From Apostichopus japonicus (taxonomy: Eukaryota > Echinodermata > Holothuroidea > Aspidochirotida > Stichopodidae), in NCBI RefSeq assembly GCF_037975245.1, contig NC_092562.1:27391554-27455553 (forward strand): a DNA stretch of 64,000 nt, given 5' to 3'. Positions 10,313 to 64,000 of this stretch are shown here, piece by piece (positions within the stretch are counted from its first letter, which is position 1; every line of letters begins with the position of its first letter). The notes beneath the pieces are model-generated. The model was not told the DNA's origin. It saw only the letters and a program-made list of their open reading frames with translations, and did not search any database. A program made the translations under genes and the position numbers.

Positions 10313-13300
10313 GTAAGTTTGAACCCTTCTAGTTAATAGAATGTCTATGGAATTTAAGCTATAGGCAAGAGTGGCAATATATCTTCCACATTGCTTGTGT
10401 CATGTAGTAGTAATGTAGTGTAATGTAGTGGTAATGTAGTAGTAATGTAGTAGTAATGTAGTAGTTATGAAGTAGTTATATGGTAGTAATGTGGTAGTAA
10501 TGTGGTAGTAATATGGTAGTAATGTAGTAGTAATATAGAAGTGATGTAGTAGTAATGTAGAAGTAATGTCGAAGTAATGTAGTAGTAATGTAGTAGTAAT
10601 AATGTAGAAGTAATGTAGTAGTAATGTAGTAGTAATGTAGTAGTAATATAGAAGTGATGTAGTAGTAATGTAGAAGTAATGTAGAAGTAATGTAGTAGTA
10701 ATGTAGTAGTAATATTGTAGAAGTAATGTAGTAGTAATGTAGTAGTTATGTAGAAGTAATGTAGTAGTAATGTAGTAGTAATGTAGAAGTAATGTAGTAG
10801 TAATGTAGTAGTAATGTAGTAGTAATGTAGAAGTAATGTAGTAGTAATGTAGAAGTAATGTAGTAGTAATGTAGTAGTAATATAGTAGTAATTTAGAAGT
10901 AATGTAGTAGTAATGTAGTAGTAATGTAGAAGTAATGTAGAAGTAATGCAGCAGGAATGTAGTAGTAATGTAGAAGTAATGTAGTAGTAATGTAGTAGTA
11001 ATGTAGAAGTAATGTAGTAGTAATGTAGTAGTAATATAGAAGTAATGTAGTAGTAATGTAGTAGTAGTGTGTAAGTAATGCGGTAGTAATGTAGTAGTAA
11101 TCTAGTAGTAATGCAGTAGTAATGTAATAGTAATCCAGTAGTAATGAATAAGTAATGCAGTAGTAATGTAGAATTAGTGTAGAAGTAATGTAGTAGTATT
11201 GTTGTTGTAGTGTGGTAGTAGTGTGGTAGTATTGTAGTAGTAATGTAGTAGAAATGCAGAAGTAATGCAGTAGTAATGTAGTAGTGATGTAAAATTAATG
11301 TAGAAGTATGTGGTAGTAGTAATGCGGTAGTAATGTAGTAGTAATTTAGAAGTAATGTAGTAGTAATCTAGTAGTAATGCAGTAGTAATGTAATAGTAAT
11401 CCAGTAGTAATGAATAAGTAATGCAGTAGTAATGTAGAATTAGTGTAGAAGTAATGTAGTAGTAGTGTTGTTGTAGTGTGGTAGTAGTGTGGTAGTAGTG
11501 TGGTAGTATTGTAGTAGTAATGTAGTAGAAATGCAGAAGTAATGCAGTAGTAATGTAGTAGTGATGTAAAATTAATGTAGAAGTATGTGGTAGTAGTAAT
11601 GCGGTAGTAATGTAGTAGTAATTTAGAAGTAATGTAGTAGTAATCTAGTAGTAATGCAGTAGTAATGTAATAGTAATCCAGTAGTAATGAATAAGTAATG
11701 CAGTAGTAATGTAGAATTAGTGTAGAAGTAATGTAGTAGTAGTGTTGTTGTAGTGTGGTAGTAGTGTGGTAGTATTGTAGTAGTAATGTAGTAGAAATGC
11801 AGAAGTAATGCAGTAGTAATGTAGTAGTGATGTAAAATTAATGTAGAAGTATGTGGTAGTAGTAATGCGGTAGTAATGTAGTAGTAATCTAGTAGTAATG
11901 CAGTAGTAATTTTGAAGTAATGCAGTAGTTAGGTAGAAGTAATGTAGAAGTAATGTGGTAGTAGTGTTGTAGTATATAGTAGTGATGTCGTATTAGTGTG
12001 GTAGTAATGTGGTAGTAATGTAGTAGTAATGAAGAAGTAATGCAGTAGTAATGAAGTAGTAATGTTGTAGTAATGTAGAAGTAATGTTGTAGTAATGTAG
12101 AAGTAATGTAGAAGTAATGAAGTAGTAATGTAGTAGTAATGTAGTAGTAATGTAGAAGTAAAGTAGATGTAACGTAGAAGTAATGAAGTAGTAGTGTTGT
12201 AGTATTGTGGTAGTAATGTGGTAGTAATGTAGAAGTAATGCAGTAGTAATGTAGAAGTAGTGTAGAAGTAATGTAGAAGTAATGTAGTAGTAATGTAGAA
12301 GTAATGCAGTAGTAATGTAGTAGTAGAGTTGTAGTATATAGTAGTGATGTGGTAGTAGTATGTTCGTAATGTGGTAGCAATGTAGTAGTAATGTAGAAGT
12401 AATGCAGTAGTAATGTAGAAGTAATGTAAAAGTAATGTAGTACTGCGTGTTTTAGTATTGTGGTAGTACTGTGGTAGTAGTGTGTTAGTAATGTGGTAGT
12501 AATGTAGAAGTAATGCAGTAGTAACGTAGTAGTAATGTAGAAGTAATGTAGTAGTATTTTGTATTATTGTGGTTGTAGTGTGTTAGTAATGTTGTAGTAA
12601 TGTAGAAGTAATGTAGAAGTAATGTAGAAGTAATGTAGAAGTAATGTAGTTGTAATGTAGAAGTAAAGTAGATGTAACATAGAAGTAATGAAGTAGTAGT
12701 GTTGTAGTATTGTGGTAGTAATGTGGTAGTAATGTAGAAGTAATGCAGTAGTAATGTAGAAGTAGTGTAGAAGTAATGTAGAAGTAATGTAGTAGTAATG
12801 TAGAAGTAATGCAGTAGTAATGTCATGTAGAAGTAATGCAGAAGTAATGTAGTAGTAGAGTTGTAGTATATAGTAGTGATGTGGTAGTAGTATGTTAGTA
12901 ATGTGGTAGCAATGTAGTAGTAATGTAGAAGTAATGCAGTAGTAATGTAGAAGTAATGTAAAAGTAATGTAGTACTTAGTGTTGTAGTATTGTGGTAGTA
13001 CTGTGGTAGCAGTGTGTTAGTAATGTGGTAGTAATGTAGAAGTAATGCAGTAGTAATGTAGAAGTAATGTAGAAGTAATGTAGTAGTATTTTGTATTATT
13101 GTGGTAGTAGTGTGTTAGTAATGTGGTGGTAATGTAGAAGTAGTGTAGCAGTAGAGTTGTATTATTGTGGTAGTAGTGTGCTAGTTATGTGGTAGTAATG
13201 TAGTAGTAATGCAGAAGTAATGCATTAGTAATGTAGAAGTAATGTAAATGTAATGTAGTAGTTAGTGTTGTAGTATTGTAGTAATGTGGTAGTAGTGTGT

Positions 13301-13812
13301 TAGTAATGTTGTAGTAATGTGATAGTAATGTAGAAGTAATGCAGTTGTAATTTAGAAGTAATGTAGTAGTAACGTAGAAGTAATGCAGTAGTACTGTAAT
13401 TTAGTTGTAATGTAGAAGTAATGTAGAAGTAATGTAGTAGTAGTGTGGTGGTAATGTAGTAGTAACGTAGTAGTAATGTAGTAGTAATGTAGCTATATCA
13501 TAAACATATCATTTAAAGCATGGGCTTCCATGCCTCTTTGTCTAACGAGTAACTACTGTACTTACTTCCTGTTCCCGAGTTTATTCACTCCTCAATATGC
13601 ATGCTTAACCACAGATGACAACCTGTTGCATCTCATGTGTATATACAAAAGTGGTTAGTCATAGCCCTCTGCTACTGTATGTGCCTTAGTAATTATCAGT
13701 AAAAGAGTCTGTGACAATAAGTTGATGATACTAAAGTTACATGAGATATTTTTTACTATTGGTAGTACTTGTGGAGTGTGATCATAATTTATTGTTTTCT
13801 TCAATAAATCAG
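10313..13812 (+). other. Intron with 3.1-kb minisatellite
   Basis: The 3.5-kb intron inside the KNR-YDDHSRV region of D1. About 88% of its length is the 11-bp minisatellite listed next. The remaining 13500-13812 is ordinary AT-rich sequence ending in the acceptor AATCAG. Confidence 0.85.
10403..13497. repeat. 11-bp minisatellite TAGTAGTAATG
   Basis: About 280 tandem copies of an 11-bp unit, tagtagtaatg or tagaagtaatg with single-base variants. The plus strand is almost free of C. A higher-order repeat of about 266-277 bp is visible at 11070-11880, for example the variant aatccagtagtaatgaat recurs near 11132, 11398 and 11675. Because the minus strand lacks stop trinucleotides, it shows long spurious frames (11889-12380 and 12485-12826) of repeating H-Y-Y-I-T-T-T-L-L; these are not genes. 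Confidence 0.95.
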
Positions 13813-41029: not shown

Positions 41030-43265
41030 GTACATACAGTATACAGTACACTACATACAGTACAGTATGTGTGTTGGGTACCAATTTCATGTTGTAGTCC
41101 TGGGTATGTGATAATTTCAAGTGACAACTCAAGTTAATGTCTATGTCTGAGCTTGAATATACATGTGTTTTGTATTGAAAGCAAGTCTTTGAATTCAAAT
41201 TTCCCAATTTTTACTTCATATTTTACACAAAAAAATAGCAGATCTTACATAAGGCCTATTCTTAGTATATACAGTACAGTACATACAGTACAGTATATAC
41301 AGTATATAGTATAGTGTGTTGGGTACTGATTTCATTTTGAAGTCATGGTATGTGTTAATTTCAAGTGACAACTCAAGTTAATGTCTATGTCTGGGCTTAA
41401 ATATACATGTCTTTTGTATTGAAAGCAAGTCTTTGAATTCAAATTTTTAAATTTTCACTTCATATTTCACACGAAAAAATAGCACACCTTACATAAGGCC
41501 TATTCTTAGTATATACAGTACAGTACAGTACATACAGTACAGTATATACAGTATATAGTATAGTGTGTTGGGTACTGATTTCATTTTGAAGTCATGGTAT
41601 GTGATAATTTCAAGTGACAACTCAAGTTAATGTCTTTGTCTGAGCTTAAATATACATGTGTTTTGTATTGAAAGCAAGTCTTTGAATTCCAATTTTCCAA
41701 TTTTCACTTCATATTTCACAGAAAAAAACTAGCTGACCTTACATTAGGCCTATTCTTAGTATATACAGTACAGTACATACAGTACAGTATATACAGTATA
41801 TAGTATAGTGTGTTGGGTACTGATTTCATTTTGAAGTCATGGTATGTGTTAATTTGAAGTGACAACTCAAGTTAATGTCTATGTCTGGGCTTAAATATAC
41901 ATGTGTTTTGTATTGAAAGCAAGTCTTAGAATTAAAATTTTCCAATATTTTATTTCATATTTCACACGAAAAAATAGCACACCTGACATAAGGCCTATTC
42001 TTAGTATATACAGTACAGTACATACAGTACAGTATATACAGTATATAGTATAGTGTGTTGGGTACTGATTTCATTTTGAAGTCATGGTATGTGTTAATTT
42101 CAAGTGACAACTCAAGTTAATGTCTATGTCTGGGCTTAAATATACATGTCTTTTGTATTGAAAGCAAGTCTTTGAATTAAAATTTTCAAATTTTCACTTC
42201 ATATTTCACACAAAAAAACTAGCAGACCTTACATAAGGCCTATTCTTAGTATATACAGTACAGTACATACAGTACAGTATATATAGTATAGTGTGTTGGG
42301 TACTGATTTCATTTTGAAGTCATGGTATGTGATAATTTCAAGTGACAACTCAAGTTAATGTCTTTGTCTGAGCTTAAATATACATGTGTTTTGTATTGAA
42401 AGCAAGTCTTTGAATTCCAATTTTCCAATTTTCACTTCATATTTCACAGAAAAAAACTAGCTGACCTTACATTAGGCCTATTCTTAGTATATACAGTACA
42501 GTACATACAGTACAGTATATACAGTATATAGTATAGTGTGTTGGGTACTGATTTCATTTTGAAGTCATGGTATGTGTTAATTTGAAGTGACAACTCAAGT
42601 TAATGTTTATGTCTGGGCTTAAATATACATGTGTTTTGTATTGAAAGCAAGTCTTTGAATTAAAATTTTCCAATATTTTATTTAATATTTCACACGAAAA
42701 AATAGCACACCTTACATAAGGCCTATTCTTAGTATATACAGTACAGTACATACAGTACAGTATATACAGTATATAGTATAGTGTGTTGGGTACTGATTTC
42801 ATTTTGAAGTCATGGTATGTGATAATTTGAAGTGACAACTCAAGTTAATGCCTATGTCTGAGCTTGAATATGTGTTTTGTATTGAAAGCAAGTCTTTGAA
42901 TTAAAATTTTGCAACTTGGAAATCATATTTCAGACAAAAAACTAGCACACCTAAAATTATTCTTAGTGAACAGTACAGTGTGTTGGGTACTATTTTATGT
43001 TGTAGTCCTGGTATATGATAGTTTGAAGTGACAACTCAAGTTAATGTCTATGTCTGAGCTTGCATATATGTGTTTTGTATTGAAAGCAAGTCTTTGAATT
43101 AAAATTTCCCAACTTTTACTTTATATTTCACACAAAAAACTAGCAGACCTGACATTATTCTTAGTATATACAGTACAGGTACTGTACATACAGTTCATAC
43201 AGAACATATACAGTACAATATAGTGTGTTGGATACTGATTTCATGTTGTACAGTACAGTACATAC

Positions 43266-43727
43266 GGTGACATCCCTATGTTCCGACGTCTCTATGTTCC
43301 GACGTCTCTTTGTTCCGACGTCTCTTTGTTCCGACGTCTCTTTGTTCCGACAATTTGTTTGGACTTTATAATTTTTTTTGACCAAAGTTTTTACGGACCC
43401 AATTTTTGGGGGGAGACGCAATCTTTTTGGATGCTCCAAAAAAAAAAGGGCCCAAAGTTTGTTATGACCCAAAAAGTGCTTGTGACCGAAAATTGCTTGT
43501 GACCCGAAATTTTATTGTTTGTACTCAAATTTTTTGGGATCAAAATCAGTTTGGTCAAAAAAAATTTTGGTCCGAAAAAAGTTGGTTCAAAAAAAATATG
43601 GTCATAAAAAAATTTGGTCTAAAATAATTTTGGACCAATGAAAATTGAGCCCGAAAATTGTCGGAACATAGAGAAGTCGGAACATAGAGATGTCGGAACA
43701 GAGACGTCAGAACATAGAGATGTAACC
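43266..43727 (+). mobile_element. 462-bp inverted-repeat element, copy 2
   Basis: Nearly identical to the element at 40568 and exactly 2698 bp downstream, with the same gtacatac flanks and the same surrounding satellite variants. It therefore arose by duplication of the satellite segment, not by a second insertion. Confidence 0.75.
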
Positions 43728-45049
43728 GTACATACAGTATACAGTACACTACATACAGTACAGTATGTGTGTTGGGTACCAATTTCATGTTGTAGTCCTG
43801 GGTATGTGATAATTTCAATTGACAACTCAAGTTAATGTCTATGTCTGAGCTTGAATATACATGTGTTTTGTATTGAAAGCAAGTCTTTGAATTCAAATTT
43901 CCCAATTTTTACTTCATATTTTACACAAAAAAATAGCAGATCTTACATAAGGCCTATTCTTAGTATATACAGTACAGTACATACAGTACAGTATATACAG
44001 TATATAGTATAGTGTGTTGGGTACTGATTTCATTTTGAAGTCATGGTATGTGTTAATTTCAAGTGACAACTCAAGTTAATGTCTATGTCTGGGCTTAAAT
44101 ATACATGTGTTTTGTATTGAAAGCAAGTCTTTGAATTCAAATTTTCCAATTTTCACTTCATATTTCACAGAAAAAAACTAGCAGACCTTACATAAGGCCT
44201 ATTCTTAGTATATACAGTACAGTACAGTACAGTACATACAGTACAGTATATACAGTATATAGTATAGTGTGTTGGGTACTGATTTCATTTTGAAGTCATG
44301 GTATGTGATAATTTCAAGTGACAACTCAAGTTAATGTCTTTGTCTGAGCTTAAATATACATGTGTTTTGTATTGAAAGCAAGTCTTTGAATTCCAATTTT
44401 CCAATTTTCACTTCATATTTCACAGAAAAAAACTAGCTGATCTTACATTAGGCATATTCTTAGTATATACAGTACAGTACATACAGTACAGTATATACAG
44501 TATATAGTATAGTGTGTTGGGTACTGATTTCATTTTGAAGTCATGGTATGTGTTAATTTGAAGTGACAACTCAAGTTAATGTTTATGTCTGGGCTTAAAT
44601 ATACATGTGTTTTGTATTGAAAGCAAGTCTTTGAATTAAAATTTTCCAATATTTTATTTCATATTTCACACGAAAAAATAGCACACCTTACATAAGGCCT
44701 ATTCTTAGTATATACAGTACAGTACAGTACATACAGTACAGTATATACAGTATATAGTATAGTGCGTTGGGTACTGATTTCATTTTGAAGTCATGGTATG
44801 TGTTAATTTGAAGTGACAACTCAAGTTAATGTCTATGTCTGGGCTTAAATATACATGTGTTTTGTATTGAAAGCAAGTCTTTGAATTAAAATTTTCAAAT
44901 TTTCACTTCATATTTCACAGAAAAAAACTAGCAGACCTTACATAAGGCCTATTCTTAGTATATACAGTACAGTACATACAGTACAGTATATACAGTATAT
45001 AGTATAGTGTGTTGGGTACTGATTTCATTTTGAAGTCATGGTATGTGAG

Positions 45050-45843
45050 AAAGCAGCATTTTGCGTTGGGTCGCTTTTTTCCACCTTTTTAACATGTGCA
45101 TCGATTTTTTTACATGTATCAATCATAAAACAGCAAACTAAGAAAGCATCCAAGTTTCACCCTGCCAAGAGCGTTAATTAGCGAGTAATTAACGATTTAT
45201 ATCGATAACGAGTAAAAGTGTCCTCGACAAAGTTTTCATATCTCCAAATCCACTAGTTTGAATTCCACCAATCAGTGAATAGTATGTTTATTCATGAGCA
45301 TTTTGCGTTTGGTCGCCGTTTTCTACTTTTTTGACATGTCCATCGAGTTTTTTACATACATCAAATCACAAAACAGCAAATTAAGATATTAGCCAAGTTT
45401 TTCCCTGCCAAAAATGTTAATTGGCGAGTATTCCACATACAAAATTAATCGCATTCAGTTCCCAAACCCACTAGTTTGAATTCAACCAATCAGAGATGCA
45501 GGTTTAGTTACGAGCCGTTGCTAAAAATAGATTCAAGACTTTGCGTTGGAACAACTGCCATATAGACTGTACACAAATCAAGCGTGGTGTTATAATACGT
45601 ATCTGTCAATGACGTTCGTAGGTTTAAATATTCATATTATGGGCGAGGTTTATTGGGTTCCCAACGGAAAATATCTTGGAGAACAACAAAGTTGAAAGTT
45701 GCAATTTTTTCGACTTTTATGCCACCATTTGGAGTAAAATATAAATAGATAAGCTAGTTATGTATGTCGTTATGGCATAGTGGAGTCAGTGAGGTTGAAA
45801 AAAATCATAGTCGAGGACTCAAAATGCTGCTTTAATTTGAAGT
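45050..45843 (+). mobile_element. 794-bp inverted-repeat element inside satellite array 2
   Basis: It interrupts a satellite unit between ggtatgtga and aatttgaagtgac. The ends are aaagcagcattttg and its perfect 14-bp reverse complement. Inside, a segment of about 240 bp is repeated in tandem (cattttgcgttgggtcgc near 45057 and cattttgcgtttggtcgcc near 45299), each with a caaa(a)cagcaaa(c/t)taaga part. No long frame is present. It looks like a miniature DNA transposon; a clean target duplication is not visible. Confidence 0.65.
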
Positions 45844-47240
45844 GACAACTCAAGTTAATGTCTATGTCTGGGCTTAAATATACATGTGTTTTGTATTGAA
45901 TGCAAGTCTTTGAATTAAAATTTTCCAATTTTCACTTCATATTTCACAGAAAAAACTAGCAGACCTTACATTAGGCCTATTCTACAGTACAGTACATACA
46001 GTACAGTGTATACAGTATATAGTATAGTGTGTTGGGTACTGATTTCATTTTGAAGTCATGGTATGTGTTAATTTCAAGTGACAACTCAAGTTAATGTTTT
46101 GTATTGAAAGCAAGTCTTTGAATTAAAATTTTCCAATTTTCACTTCATATTTCACACGAAAAAATAGCACACCTTACATTAGGCCTATTCTTAGTATATA
46201 CAGTACAGTACATACAGTACAATATATACAGTATATAGTATGGTGTGTTGGGTACTGATTTCATTTTGAAGTCATGGTATGTGTTAATTTGAAGTGACAA
46301 CTCAAGTTAATGTTTTGTATTGAAAGCAAGTCTTTGAATTAAAAGTTTCCAATTTTTTATTTCATATTTCACACGAAAAAATAGCACACCTTACATAAGG
46401 CCTATTCTTAGTATATACAGTACAGTACATACAGTACAGTATATACAGTATATAGTATAGTGTGTTGGGTACTGATTTCATTTTGAAGTCATGGTATGTG
46501 ATAATTTCAAGTGACAACTCAAGTTAATGTCTTTGTCTGAGTTTAAATATACATGTGTTTTGTATTGAAAGCAAGTCTTTGAATTAAAATTTTCCAATTT
46601 TCACTTCATTTTTCACAGAAAAAACTAGCTGACCTTACATTAGGCCTATTCTTAGTATATACAGTACAGTACATACAGTACAGTATATACAGTATATAGT
46701 ATAGTGTGTTGGGTACTGATTTCATTTTGAAGTCATGGTATGTGATAATTTCAAGTGACAACTCAAGTTAATGTCTTTGTCTGAGCTTAAATATACATGT
46801 GTTTTGTATTGAAAGCAAAGTCTTTGAATTAAAATTTCCAATTTTCACTTCATTTTTCACAGAAAAAACCAGCAGACCTTACATTAGGCCTATTCTTAGT
46901 ATATACAGTACAGTACATACAGTACAGTATATACAGTATATAGTATAGTGTGTTGGGTACCGATTTCATGTTGTAGTCCTGGGTATGTGATAATTTCAAG
47001 TGACAACTCAAGTTAATGTCTATGTCTGGGCTTAAATATACATGTGTTTTGTATTGAAAGCAAGTCTTTGAATTAAAATTTTCCAATATTCACTTCATAT
47101 TTCACAGAAAAAACTAGCAGACCAGTTACATAAGGCCTATTCTGAGTATATACAGTACAGTAAATACAGTACATACAGTACAGTATATAGTATAGTGTGT
47201 TGGGTACTGATTTCATGTTGTAGTCCTGGTATGTGATAAT

Positions 47241-56459: not shown

Positions 56460-59295
56460 AAATATCGACAGATTCAGGAAGAAATCAACCCGTCAAATAT
56501 GGGTCTGTTTTATATCCTTTAATTACTGAACTCGTAGATCTGTTTAAATCATGTATCATTGAGCATATCAAGATTAATATTAAAAACAGATAACGTTATC
56601 AAATATGTATTTTTTGGCATGTCATACGGTTTTCCTTTAGGTTAATTTATTCTCAACAAATCGTTATTTGGGAACATTGGCAAAAAAAAAACATTTGTAA
56701 GCTGGCATCAACAATCCTCGTTACATGGGTTGGGATTATTATAGGAAACCCCAAAAGAATAACCCCAATCCATTACCCTTAATATTAGTATGATAATACT
56801 GTTGACCGTTTATAAAAATTGTCATAAAAGCAGCTGGTTAAGAAAGATCACAACCTAAATATTTTCTTTTGGTCTATAGAATGTATCTGGATAGTAGTAT
56901 TAACGTTTTTTTTTTTAGTAACACACGTAACCTCAATTGGAATATATAATCGTATGTATATGAGCGGATTATGTGGACCGTCCACATAATCTGAGACACA
57001 TGATATTGTATAACATATTGATTCTTAAGCAAAGCTCCTCTTGAATATATTCAGAAATGATCAGCTAATCTAATACCCACTGACAGCCTTCTGAACAAGG
57101 GCCAAACCCTCAAATCTCGAAATATTTCAGTTAATCATCACTACGTCAAACAAGGGTCTGTTTATATCCTTTATTTTCCGAAGTTATAGATCTGTCTATA
57201 TCATGTGTCATTGAGCATAGAAATATTGATATTAAAAATAGATAGCCATATCATATTAAATTTGTGCATGGAAGTCGGTTTACCTACATTGCAATGAAAC
57301 TTGATCTCAACTTTAATTGGAAACATTGGAAATGAACCACTCCTGTAAACTGACCTCAATGACCACCGGTGCAAAGTTATGGATGGTATTGCTGCCCCCC
57401 CCCCCCGCACCCTTACCCCCCCCCCCCCCGACTTAAAAAGCCTTTGAAAATAAAACTTACTATTACCCTTATCCTGTAAGATAATACTCATAACCATTCA
57501 AATATTAATTGTTTAAAACGAAGCTGTTAAGAAAATAGTGTGTATTAGGATAGTAGTGTAACGTGAATGGTTTTTATACTCATCCGTAGTAAGCGGTGCA
57601 CTTAGCTACATAGCCAGCCATGTCATGAATATTTATAGTCAATTGGGATGTAATTTAGGATGGTTAAATGCTTATTGATGTGTTTTATAGTCTAATTAAG
57701 AGAGTTATGGGTTTAGTAAAACGGTATTATCAGTGAGTTTAATGTCTACGACATATTTGCATATGTTTGGGGGAATAATGTTGTTGTTGTTAATGAAATA
57801 GTTAAAGAGATTTTACGTCACATGTTGTATTGTTTTATTGCTTATTATATGTACCAGAGTGTCACCACCGCGTCAAATTTTTGAAATTAATCTATTATAT
57901 AAGTTCGCATTCACATTTACTAAATATTTATACCCAGAGATTTATTATTTTCTTGTTACTGTAATATGGCCTGGTCTCTAGTTACTACGGTTAACCATGC
58001 AGGTAAAAACGGAATATAACCACGACATTTCCGTAAAGGAACATCTGACAGTATTCTCTGCTGTGCTAAAGAGCCCCCAGAATGCAATAGTAGCATTGAG
58101 GTCTTTGTTTAATAATCCACGTCATCCTAATTGAAATATATAATCGTAATTGTATAATCGGTTTATGTGGATCGTCCACATTATATTTTACGTATGATGT
58201 TGTATTGTTAATTGATTATAACTAAAACCGTAATTGAAAATATTAAAAATTAATCAACTACATTAATTCACAATAACGGTCTTCTGAATAAGGGCTACAC
58301 ACCCTCATATCTTGATATGTTTCAGGTAGGAATCACCCCGTCAAATATGGGTCTGTATTATATCCAGTATTTACCGAACTCGTAGATCTGTTTAAATCAT
58401 GTGTATTGAAGGTATTTAATATATTCATATAGAAGTATTAATGTCTTTTTTCTGTAGCACACGTAATCTCAATTGGAATATATAATCGTAAGTGTACGAG
58501 CGGATTATGTGGACCGTCCACATAATCTTATATACATTTCATAGTATTGTTTATTGATTATAAACCAAAATTAGGGTTTAAAATTTATCAACTACATTAA
58601 TTCAAACAACTGTGTTCAAAGGAAGGACCCAGCACCAAATATCTACAGATTCAGTAAGGAATCAACCCGTCAAATATGGGTCTGTTTTATATCCTGTATT
58701 TACCGAACTCGTAGATCTAATTAAATCATGTGTATTGAAGGTATTTAATATATTCATATAGAAGTATTAATGTCTTTTTTCTGTAGCACACGTAATCTCA
58801 ACTGGAATATATAATCGTAAGTGTACGAGCGGATTATGTGGACCGTCCACATAATCTTATACACATTTCATTGTATTGTTTATTGATTATAAACCAAAAT
58901 TAGGGTTTAAATTTTATCAACTACATTAATTCAAAACAACTGTGTTCAAAGGAATGACCCCGCACCAAATATCGATAGATTCAGTAAGGAATCAACCCGT
59001 CAAATATGGGTCTGTTTTATATCCTGTATTTACCGAACTCGTAGATCTGTTTGAATCATGTGTATTGAATGTATTGAATATATTCATATAGAAGTATTAA
59101 CGTCTTTTTTTCTGTAACACACGTAATCTCAATTGGAATATATAATCATAAGTGTACGAGCGGATTATGTGGACCGTCCACATAATCTTATACACATTTC
59201 ATTGTATTGTTTATTGATTATAAACCAAAATTAGGGTTGAAAATTGATCAACTCTATTAATTCAAAATAACCGTTCTTATGAAAGACCCCGCACC
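56460..59295. repeat. Higher-order repeat 1 of satellite 3 (2836 bp)
   Basis: The marker tcaagattaatattaaaaac is at 56568 and recurs at 59404, giving a period of 2836 bp. The internal order is several diverged monomers, a C-rich variant at 57390-57430, and three standard monomers near 58503-59187. Confidence 0.85.
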
Positions 59296-61800
59296 AAATA
59301 TCGACAGATTCAGGAAGGAATCAACCCGTCAAATATGGGTCTGTTTTATTACCTTTAATTACTGAACTCGTAGATCTGTTTAAATCATGTATCATTGAGC
59401 ATATCAAGATTAATATTAAAAACAGATAACGTTATCAAATATGTATTTTTTGGCATGTCATACGGTTTTCCTTTAGGTTAATTTATTCTCAACAAATCGT
59501 TATTTGGGATCATTGGAAAAAAAAAAAACACATTTGTAAGCTGGCATCAACAATCCTCTTTACATGGGTTGGGATTATTATAGGAAACCCCAAAAGAATA
59601 ACCCCAATCCATTACCCTTAATATTAGTATGATAATACTGTTGACCGTTTATAAAAATTGTCATAAAAGCAGCTGGTTAAGAAAGATCACAACCTAAATA
59701 TTTTCTTTTGGTCTATAGAATGTATCTGGATAGTAGTATTAACGTTTTTTTTTTTTTTAGTAACACACGTAATCTCAATTGGAATATATAATCGTAAGTA
59801 TATGAGCGGATTATGTGGACCGTCCACATAATCTGAGACACATGATATTGTATAACATATTGATTCTTAAGCAAAGCTCCTCTTGAATATATTCAGAAAT
59901 GATCAGCTAATCTAATACCCACTGACAGCCTTCTGAACAAGGGCCAAACCCTCAAATCTCGAAATATTTCAGTTAATCATCACTACGTCAAACAAGGGTC
60001 TGTTTATATCCTTTATTTTCCGAAGTTATAGATCTGTCTATATCATGTGTCATTGAGCATAGAAATATTGATATTAAAAATAGATAGCCATATCATATTA
60101 AATTTGTGCATGGAAGTCGGTTTACCTACATTGTAATGAAACTTGATCTCAACTTTAATTGGAAACATTGGAAATGAACCACTCCTGTAAACTGACCTCA
60201 ATGACCACCGGTGCAAAGTTATGGATGGTATTGCTGCCCCCCCCCTCCGCACCCTTACCCCCCGACTTAAGAAGCCTTTGAAAATAAAACTTACTATTAC
60301 CCTTATCCTGTAAGATAATACTCATAACCATTCAAATATTAATTGTTTAAAACGAAGCTGTTAAGAAAATAGTGTGTATTAGGATAGTAGTGTAACGTGA
60401 ATGGTTTTTATACTCATCCGTAGTAAGCGGTGCACTTAGCTACATAGCCAGCCATGTCATGAATATTTATAGTCAAGTGGGATGTAATTTAGGATGGTTA
60501 AATGCTTATTGATGTGTTTTATAGTCTAATTAAGAGAGTTATGGGTTTAGTAAAACGGTATTATCAGTGAGGTTAATGTCTACGACATATTTGCATATGT
60601 TTGGGGGATAATGTTGTTGTTGTTAATGAAATAGTTAAAGAGATTTTACGTCACATGTTGTATTGTTTTATTGCTTATTATATGTACCAGAGTGTCACCA
60701 CCGTGTCAATTTTTGAAATTAATCTATTATATAAGTTCGCATTCACATTTACTAAATATTTGTACCCAGAGATTTATTATTTTCTTGTTACTGTAATATG
60801 GCCTGGTCTCTAGTTACTACGGTTAACCATGCAGGTAAAAACAGAACCTAACCACGACATTTCCGTAAAGGAACATCTGACAGTATTCTCTGCTGTGCTA
60901 AAGAGCCCCCAGAATGCAATAGTAGCATTGAGGTCTTTGTTTAATAATCCACGTTATCCTAAATGAAATATATAATCGTAATTGTATAATCGGTTTATGT
61001 GGATCGTCCACATTATATTATACGTATGATGTTGTATTGTTAATTGATTACAACTAAAACCGTAATTAAAATATTAAAAATTAATCAACTACATTAATTC
61101 ACAATAACGGTCTTCTGAATAAGGGCTACACACCCTCATATCTTGATATGTTTCAGGTAGGAATCACCCCGTCAAATATGGGTCTGTTTGATATCCAGTA
61201 TGTACCGAACTCGTAGATCTGTTTAAATCATGTGTATTGAAGGTATTTAATATATTCATATAGAAGTATTAACGTCTTTTTTTCTTTAGCACACGTAATC
61301 TCAATTGGAATATATAATCGTAAGTGTACGAGCGGATTATGTGGACCGTCCACATAATCTTATACACATTTCATTGTATTTTTTATTGATTATAAACCAA
61401 AATTAGGGTTTAAAATTTATCAACTACATTAATTCAAAACAACTGTGTTCAAAGGAAGGACCCAGCACCAAATATCTACAGATTCAGTAAGGAATCAACC
61501 CGTCAAATATGGGTCTGTTTTATATCCTGTATTTACCGAACTCGTAGATCTAATTAAATCATGTGTACTGAATGTATTGAATATATTCATATAGTAGTAT
61601 TAACGTCTTTTTTTTCTGTAACACACGTAATCTCAATTGGAATATATAATCATAAGTGTACGAGCGGATTATGTGGACCGTCCACATAATCTTATACACA
61701 TTTTATTGTATTGTTTATTGATTATAAACCAAACTTAGGGCTTAAAATTTATCAACTATATTAATTCAAAAGAACTGTGTTCAAAGGAAGGACCCTGCAC
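59296..61800. repeat. Higher-order repeat 2 of satellite 3 (2506 bp)
   Basis: The marker recurs at 61910, so this copy is 330 bp shorter than repeat 1: exactly one standard monomer is missing. Otherwise the order and sequence are nearly the same. Confidence 0.85.
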
Positions 61801-63261: not shown

Positions 63262-63471
63262 ATTACTAAAAATCGCTTCTCGGCCTTTTGGCTAAGATCA
63301 TGTGTAGTATCTGTTCCCTTAGGGAATGGTGATACACACCTGACGATGATCACACAGTCACAGTCCCGATGGAAGGGGACTGGGGCTGAGAGCGGATCAG
63401 TCGTTTGGTAGTTTGGTTTTCGTGCCCAGGTTCTTTCCTGGGTGACTTTTTCTTAAAAAGTATTACTAAAA
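63262..63471 (+). mobile_element. U2-headed SINE-like retroposon with target-site duplication
   Basis: A 190-bp insertion (63272-63461) flanked by attactaaaa at 63262-63271 and 63462-63471. Its first 45 bases, starting atcgcttctcggcctttt, match the 5' end of metazoan U2 snRNA with one mismatch, including the branch-site-pairing gtagta. From 63317 the sequence no longer follows U2: it has none of the Sm-site and 3' stem-loop sequence. The 3' part has a stem cccagg (63425-63430) with cctggg (63437-63442) and ends in acttttt pairing with aaaaagt; the T run could serve as a Pol III terminator. The two other higher-order repeats have the uninterrupted site (near 57915 and 60748), which proves insertion. 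It is best explained as a SINE whose head was taken from U2, mobilised by a LINE in trans; a functional U2 gene is excluded. Confidence 0.85.
63272..63316 (+). pseudogene. U2 snRNA 5'-end fragment
   Basis: The 45-nt head of the retroposon, equal to U2 nucleotides 1-45 (stem I, start of stem II and the branch-recognition sequence) with a single change (A to T at position 30). It lacks the rest of U2 and any upstream snRNA promoter, so it cannot act as a spliceosomal RNA. Confidence 0.88.
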
Positions 63472-64000
63472 ATTTGTACCCAGAGATTTATTATTTTCTT
63501 GTTACTGTAATATGGCCTGGTCTCTAGTTACTACGGTTAACCATGCAGGTAAAAACAGAACCTAACCACGACATTTCCGTAAAGGAACATCTGACAGTAT
63601 TCTCTGCTGTGCTAAAGAGCCCCCAGAATGCAATAGTAGCATTGAGGTCTTTGTTTAATAATCCACGTTATCCTAAATGAAATATATAATCGTAATTGTA
63701 TAATCGGTTTATGTGGATCGTCCACATTATATTATACGTATGATGTTGTATTGTTAATTGATTATAACTAAAACCGTAATTGAAAATTTTAAAAATTAAT
63801 CAACTACATTAATTCACAATAACGGTCTTCTGAATAAGGGCTACACACCCTCATATCTTGATATGTTTCAGGTAGGAATCACCCAGTCAAATATGGGTCT
63901 GTATTATATCCAGTATTTACCGAACTCGTAGATCTAATTAAATCATGTGTATTGAAGGTATTTAATATATTCATATAGAAATATTAATGTCTTTTTTCTG

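What the first reader, a model, noticed from the sequence alone, without database searches (positions are those of the whole stretch)
63262..63471. U2 snRNA-headed retroposon with target duplication and two internal empty sites
A 190-bp insertion has U2 nucleotides 1-45 as its head, a non-U2 body, a 3' stem and a 10-bp target duplication. snRNA-headed SINEs (SINEU) are known from crocodilians; an independent family in an invertebrate would be notable. The other two higher-order repeats in this window preserve the pre-insertion site, which dates the event after the satellite duplication.
Basis: partly seen in the sequence, partly recalled or inferred. Interest (0 to 1): 0.75.

Follow-up and report, generated by a model that had tools for sequence, protein, structure and literature searches.

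The report
U2-headed SINE seated in U2 genes
A short jumping sequence begins with the first 45 letters of the splicing RNA U2, and copies of it also sit inside the animal's own U2 gene cluster, which suggests it borrows the U2 gene's switch to make the RNA that it spreads with.

Summary
The window copy (63272-63461) is a 190-bp retroposon: U2 nt 1-45, a 145-nt body without Rfam relative, and an 11-bp target duplication. In its genome (671 Mb) the young head-body joint occurs 162 times and the body core 1,888 times (reversed controls 0). Of 76 young copies, 50 have target duplications of 7 nt or more, 49 different.

The surprise lies elsewhere. Contig 16 holds a tandem array of genuine U2 genes. 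At six places there the element's 3' end joins U2 at nt 38, the site also used by LINEs with an L1-type endonuclease and reverse transcriptase (Keno-like). In three, U2 promoter region and U2 1-45 run straight into the body; one of these is letter-identical to 27 of 86 dispersed copies (10 full-length). All 86 checked 3' flanks begin with A, consensus ATCT as in U2.

Best reading: the head is target sequence; U2-resident copies are source genes read from the U2 promoter, and Keno-type LINEs supply the enzyme. Transcription, direction and helper are inferred. Against it: the one LINE end searched occurs only beside U2, while the SINE is mostly dispersed.

The parts
63262..63272 (+). 5' copy of the target duplication ATTACTAAAAA (last A may be U2 +1)
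   Evidence: Sequence; empty repeats aligned
63272..63316 (+). Head: U2 snRNA nt 1-45, identical to the host U2 gene
   Evidence: Rfam RF00004; U2 genes on C16
63309..63316 (+). ATCTGTTC = U2 nt 38-45, the part of the head that lies downstream of the U2 insertion site 37|38 and is repeated after the element in full-length U2-resident copies
63317..63461 (+). Body and tail, no Rfam family; core TGACGATGATCACACAGTCACAGTC occurs 1,888 times in the genome at up to 2 mismatches
63424..63443 (+). 3' hairpin GCCCAGG...CCTGGGT
   Evidence: Fold
63445..63461 (+). Terminal hairpin ACTTTTTCTTAAAAAGT; 3' end of element
   Evidence: Fold; 3' boundary in copies with target duplications
63462..63472 (+). 3' copy of the target duplication ATTACTAAAAA
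57917..57927 (+). Empty site in first higher-order repeat
   Evidence: (repeat 57453-58454)
60749..60759 (+). Empty site in second higher-order repeat
   Evidence: (repeat 60287-61282)

Best explanation
The window copy is a dispersed, probably promoterless copy of a LINE-mobilised SINE whose source genes sit inside U2 snRNA genes. SHOWN: copies sit at U2 37|38 in a U2 gene array on contig 16; three of them read U2 promoter region, U2 1-45, body, AAAAAGT, then U2 38 onwards. The same site holds four LINE families, most copies with long open frames (endonuclease and reverse transcriptase found in the family scanned whole). Of 18 copies that begin at U2 +1 and have a target duplication, 17 have no letter between duplication and +1, and 3' junctions read A, often AT(C), like U2 38-40. 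INFERRED: the U2 promoter transcribes these interrupted genes from U2 +1, giving RNA of U2 1-45 + body + tail + some U2 3' sequence. A Keno-type LINE protein primes reverse transcription at the AGU|AUC boundary. Acting on U2 genes it refills the master site; acting elsewhere it leaves the dispersed U2-headed copies. The U2 head thus began as upstream target sequence (nt 38-45 being the duplicated part), not as a captured pseudogene with an internal promoter.
For: Family: 162 joints at up to 2 mismatches, control 0; 1,888 body cores, control 0. TPRT: duplication of 7 nt or more in 50 of 76 copies at 97% or more with intact tails (the 76 include one U2-resident copy), median 11, range 7-26, 49 distinct. 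U2 residence: the SINE end joined to U2 38 occurs 7 times at up to 2 mismatches, 6 exact in the C16 array, 1 on C20; control 0; all 7 loci were read. Structures: three with U2 1-45 heads (one with a changed head letter); one starting at about SINE nt 69 and one at about nt 120, both behind ATCTGTTCTTTTCAGC (U2 38-53), which returns after the element; one from about nt 91 joined to nt 38 of a resident copy; one old copy in a diverged U2 on C20. Identity: one U2-resident copy equals 27 of 86 dispersed copies over all the letters they have; 10 of the 27 are full length, two start so late (nt 74, 129) that they match several subfamilies. Site memory: +1 after AAAAAGT is A in 86 of 86 (one of them U2-resident), ATC in 28 of 86. 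Of 9 copies with extra letters before the duplication, 8 read A|TC or AT|C as U2 does, 1 reads AA. Copies are joined to the U2-equivalent site of other copies' heads: older ones in L039 (91%) and L010 (79%), an equally young one in L018. Same-site LINEs: in the held 121.9 kb, 16 interrupted U2 genes (13 LINE, 3 SINE) beside 48 intact ones; 9 of 11 long LINE inserts have two long open frames; one ORF2 has APE, RT and zf-RVT domains and matches L1 ORF2p (5.6e-82) better than R2 (3e-20).
Against: No RNA data. The LINE end AAACTTGAAAGAAAAGT occurs 10 times, all on C16 beside U2 or near-U2 letters (reversed control 1), whereas the SINE is mostly dispersed: that LINE seems site-strict, so dispersal needs relaxed trans-mobilisation or a second helper. 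No LINE was found with the SINE's exact last 17 nt, and blast found no match between the SINE and 13 LINE inserts at E up to 1 on the plus strand; the shared end is only about AAAGT. Identity of resident and dispersed copies does not give direction: a dispersed-type RNA could have inserted into U2, with the heads merging by pairing or gene conversion. No duplication by my rule in 26 of 76 copies. The other common subfamily (CCCTTCGGG) was not seen among the resident copies read. Covariation test of the fold was negative: 2 pairs changed on both sides, shuffles equal.
Confidence: 0.64

Rival explanations
1. Ordinary snRNA-headed SINE (SINEU type): U2 RNA was joined to a body by template switching, transcription is from dispersed copies, and insertions into U2 genes are a side effect of a helper that likes the U2 site.
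For: U2 RNA heads on SINEs are known (Kojima 2015, cited in the paper; contents recalled). Body copies far outnumber the U2-resident ones (1,888 against 7). Old, diverged copies already have the head.
Against: Head end at U2 45 and return at U2 38 fit an insertion duplication in full-length resident copies. Extra junction letters copy U2 38-39 in 8 of 9 copies. U2 has no known internal promoter (recalled), so dispersed copies would lack one.
Confidence: 0.22
2. A different, dispersed LINE mobilises the SINE genome-wide; Keno-type LINEs only put copies into U2 genes.
For: The LINE 3' end searched: 10 of 10 in the C16 U2 region, SINE mostly outside. Target duplications at dispersed sites have the usual APE-LINE length (usual length recalled).
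Against: No other element with the SINE's exact 17-nt end was recognised. Dispersed 3' junctions keep the U2-like A-T-C start. Only one LINE end was searched, exactly, so dispersed Keno variants may be missed.
Confidence: 0.3
3. The U2-interrupted genes arose by recombination or gene conversion between dispersed SINE heads and the U2 array, not by insertion.
For: Array units are nearly identical (47 of 48 intact U2 genes identical), so conversion is likely active; L095 shows a head with extra U2 letters.
Against: Two truncated copies without the SINE's own head sit at 37|38 with U2 38-53 repeated on both sides, which conversion through the head cannot give.
Confidence: 0.06

Closest known systems
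SINEU (Repbase class; Kojima 2015, doi 10.1093/gbe/evv100; paper not held, abstract recalled)
   Same: SINE whose head is U1 or U2 snRNA; the recalled abstract links it to a Tx1-group LINE (Tx1-Mar) through shared target preference.
   Different: Recalled families are crocodilian and prefer a Mariner element; no U2-gene-resident source copies are recalled. Sequence relation could not be tested.
R2 SIDEs and R2/R1 hybrid SIDEs in Drosophila 28S genes (PMC3414825; abstract and Discussion read)
   Same: Short non-autonomous elements seated in a multicopy RNA gene at a LINE's site, relying on cotranscription with the host gene.
   Different: SIDEs are built from LINE ends with a ribozyme; here no LINE-derived part was found, the first 45 nt are the host gene's own, and most copies lie outside the target genes.
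Keno / Utopia LINEs in U2 genes (PMC4640811; passages and section 6 read)
   Same: U2 as 3' flank from the same region (Utopia in Phytophthora from nt 39; Keno and Utopia share the 3' flank), several Utopia families in one U2 array; Keno has an APE-like endonuclease, as the LINE scanned here.
   Different: Those are autonomous; here a SINE shares the site. Utopia has a restriction-like endonuclease; the LINE scanned here has the APE type.

Membership tests
SINE (LINE-mobilised short retroposon) | Many dispersed copies, common ends, different target duplications | tested here: met
   162 joints; 50 of 76 with duplication, 49 distinct
SINE (LINE-mobilised short retroposon) | Small-RNA-derived head | tested here: met
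   U2 nt 1-45; 6 of 7 further body loci sampled carry U2 head sequence, the seventh is truncated
SINE (LINE-mobilised short retroposon) | Internal Pol III promoter | tested here: inconclusive
   No tRNA in window, body has no Rfam match; A/B boxes and transcription not tested
SINE (LINE-mobilised short retroposon) | 3' end shared with a partner LINE (many but not all SINEs) | tested here: inconclusive
   Exact 17-nt end outside SINE context: 2 hits, one a deleted SINE, one not read; only about AAAGT shared with three of four U2 LINE families
SINEU | Head from U1 or U2 snRNA | tested here: met
SINEU | Body homologous to crocodilian SINEU | not testable with these tools
   Paper not held, no Repbase
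SINEU | Mobilised by a Tx1-group LINE | tested here: inconclusive
   Shares U2 37|38 with APE LINEs; dispersal unexplained
R2-type SIDE | Built from the ends of the partner LINE | tested here: not met
   No blast match to 13 LINE inserts, E up to 1, plus strand
R2-type SIDE | Seated at the LINE's site in the target gene | tested here: met
R2-type SIDE | Cotranscribed with the target gene | not testable with these tools
   No RNA data
Keno (for the LINEs in the array) | APE endonuclease plus insertion at the Keno/Utopia U2 site | tested here: met
   Exo_endo_phos 3.4e-19 and RVT_1 in the one ORF2 scanned whole; 3' junction at U2 38
Keno (for the LINEs in the array) | Tx1-clade phylogeny | not tested
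   No reference set at hand; L1 ORF2p is the best solved relative

The most novel reading that the evidence does not exclude
A SINE with no promoter of its own that lives in two places: master copies inside U2 snRNA genes, kept there by the U2-site LINEs and read from the U2 promoter, and nearly two thousand dispersed copies that cannot be transcribed by themselves. The head is a record of the home gene, and snRNA heads in general may arise this way.
Probability: 0.53. Interest if true: 0.85.

Novelty: new variant of a known kind. Interest (0 to 1): 0.77.

Why it matters
U1 and U2 genes have external promoters (recalled), so how a SINE with such a head is transcribed is an open question. Here the head, the insertion site, the duplication and the U2-resident copies suggest a simple answer that can be tested in one genome: the SINE sits in the gene whose promoter it uses. 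It would also be a parasite that takes up U2 genes and could make a hybrid RNA carrying U2 5' sequence (stem I and the branch-point pairing stretch lie in U2 1-45, recalled).

Tried and rejected
Body as another structural RNA: rejected at Rfam level. One-off chimera: rejected. Partner LINE by shared 3' end: not found. Utopia as the LINE: rejected for the family scanned, whose endonuclease is APE type. RNA fold by covariation on 11 SINE rows, mostly decayed copies: no support. Template jumping as the source of all tandem copies: not needed where a 99% copy is joined to the U2 site of a 79% copy (L010); it stays possible for L018, whose two copies are both 99%. In tandem loci such as L058 successive insertions at a regenerated site fit better.

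Papers: Kojima 2015 not held, its abstract is recalled. Nothing describing U2-gene-resident SINE copies was seen in the listings of searches; this library lacks most subscription papers and some open ones.

Left undone: number of intact U2 genes in the whole genome, and a list of all inserted U2 genes (those two searches did not complete); species; the 3' ends of the other LINE families outside U2; the C17 hit.

Full report
What the window holds. The element lies at 63272-63461, between two copies of ATTACTAAAAA. Its first 45 nt are U2 and equal the host U2 gene. The rest has no Rfam relative. Two sister repeats in the window have no insert. The RNA is predicted to fold well (z -3.87), with a hairpin in which the first body nucleotides pair with U2 31-45; a covariation test on 11 rows gave no support.

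It is a family. A search of the window's own genome with the 200 bp gave 47 scored matches, most at 98-99% over the full length (2,786 first-look candidates, of which 40 were scored). The 39-nt head-body joint occurs 162 times with up to 2 mismatches and its reversed control 0 times. The body core occurs 1,888 times, control 0. I took 78 loci by best match or listed joint, which favours young copies; blast gave 106 matches reaching the tail, 90 after removing those with the same flanks. Of 76 copies at 97% or more with an intact tail (one of them U2-resident), 50 have a duplication of 7 nt or more, 49 different, length 7-26, median 11; the other 26 have none by this rule. Starts lie at U2 +1 in 27 of the 76, at nt 2-7 in 35 and further in for 14. 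Of the 18 that start at +1 and have a duplication, 17 have nothing between the two. Older subfamilies (for example with CCCTTTCGAGGGG) have the same head.

Where the sources may be. One match, L008, lies in tandem U2 genes. I read 121.9 kb of contig 16 around it. It holds U2 units of 193 + 452 bp: 48 intact U2 genes, 47 of them identical, and 16 interrupted ones. Thirteen carry LINE sequence, three carry the SINE. In 16 of 16 the downstream U2 piece matches from nt 38, or from nt 35 where the insert itself ends in AGT. Genome-wide the SINE end followed by U2 38 is found 7 times at up to 2 mismatches: 6 on C16, 31.007-31.135 Mb, all exact, and one on C20 with one mismatch. All seven were read. 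Three have the array's promoter region, U2 1-45 (one with a changed letter), body, U2 38 onwards. One has U2 1-53 and then SINE from about nt 69. One has U2 38-53 and then SINE from about nt 120, behind a LINE end. One has SINE from about nt 91 joined to nt 38 of a resident SINE. The C20 one is an old SINE (83.5%) in a diverged U2 (89.9%). In the two with U2 38-53 on both sides, ATCTGTTCTTTTCAGC is a 16-nt target duplication: plain target-primed insertions into U2. For the full-length type the repeated part is ATCTGTTC, U2 38-45, so that the 'head' is U2 1-37 plus one copy of the duplication.

The LINEs. The inserts fall into four families by end sequence and blast. Nine of 11 long inserts have two long open frames; the other two have a broken first frame. 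One family's ORF2, scanned whole, has Exo_endo_phos, RVT_1 and zf-RVT domains and its ORF1 zinc knuckles; a second family's partial frame has RVT_1. The first one's best solved relatives are L1 ORF2p, 5.6e-82; R2 follows at 3e-20. With the U2 site this fits Keno as described in PMC4640811 (passages and one section read). Three families end in AAAGT like the SINE, the fourth in AAAAGAA. The end AAACTTGAAAGAAAAGT occurs 10 times in the genome, all in the C16 U2 region (30.885-31.163 Mb): eight are followed by 17 letters of U2 from nt 38, one has a changed letter and one departs from U2 after 13 letters; the reversed control gave 1 (exact matches to one end sequence only, and the pattern left out places with G as the 17th following letter, such as the one in L093).

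Link between the two. The resident copy with CCCTTAGGG is identical to 27 of 86 dispersed copies in hand over all the letters these have; 10 of the 27 are full length, and two start too late to be assigned. After the tail, A stands first in 86 of 86 (one of them U2-resident, some in nested or tandem loci), ATC in 28 of 86. In 41 of 50 copies with a duplication, the duplication itself begins with that A; in the other nine, one or two letters stand between tail and duplication: A (5), AT (3), AA (1), and the A and AT cases all continue to ATC. So the template ended, or went on, as AGU-AUC, as a U2-resident transcript would. In L039 and L010 young copies are joined to the U2-equivalent site of older copies' heads, in L018 to that of an equally young one.

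Mechanism. I think the U2 promoter reads interrupted U2 genes from +1, that the U2-site LINE's protein uses the transcript, and that dispersed copies are end products. The insertion into U2, the same-site LINEs and the identity are shown; the transcription, the helper and the direction are inferred. The weakest step is dispersal: the LINE whose end I searched stays in U2, the SINE does not. Either the helper is less strict in trans or a second LINE acts; the 17-nt end search does not settle that. The CCCTTCGGG subfamily, common among dispersed copies, was not seen among the resident copies read, so its source is unknown.

Against the known. It is a U2-headed SINE, so SINEU is the nearest name, but homology to the crocodilian families could not be tested. 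It works like the R2 SIDEs of Drosophila (PMC3414825, abstract and Discussion) in sitting in the target gene, but is not built from the LINE ends seen here. I found no report of U2-resident SINE copies in the searches listed; that is a statement about this library only.

Noticed in passing
window 63262-63472; L004 (C2:18.07 Mb); L003/L040 (C16:38.41 Mb): The same satellite position carries SINE insertions at three places, one of them a tandem pair, with different target duplications and subfamilies, so they look independent: a local insertion hot spot.
   Followed up: partly
L058, L041, L014, L034, L039, L100: Tandem SINE runs; in L058 and L041 each copy is followed by the same target duplication, and L100 lies in a (TATCC)n repeat. 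New copies seem to use the site that the previous one recreates.
   Followed up: partly
L101 (C5:2227700-2228050): SINE copy with an inverted 3' piece in front of the truncated body, like twin priming.
   Followed up: no
L095 and the older copy in L039: Heads reading CTGTTCTTTT before the body, i.e. a few more U2 letters than usual; may be exchange with U2 genes.
   Followed up: no
window 10402-13492: An 11-bp tandem array (ATGTAGTAGTA) in a stretch with very strong G-over-C skew, 0.62-0.70.
   Followed up: no
window 41041-47240: About 245-bp satellite array with short internal repeats.
   Followed up: no
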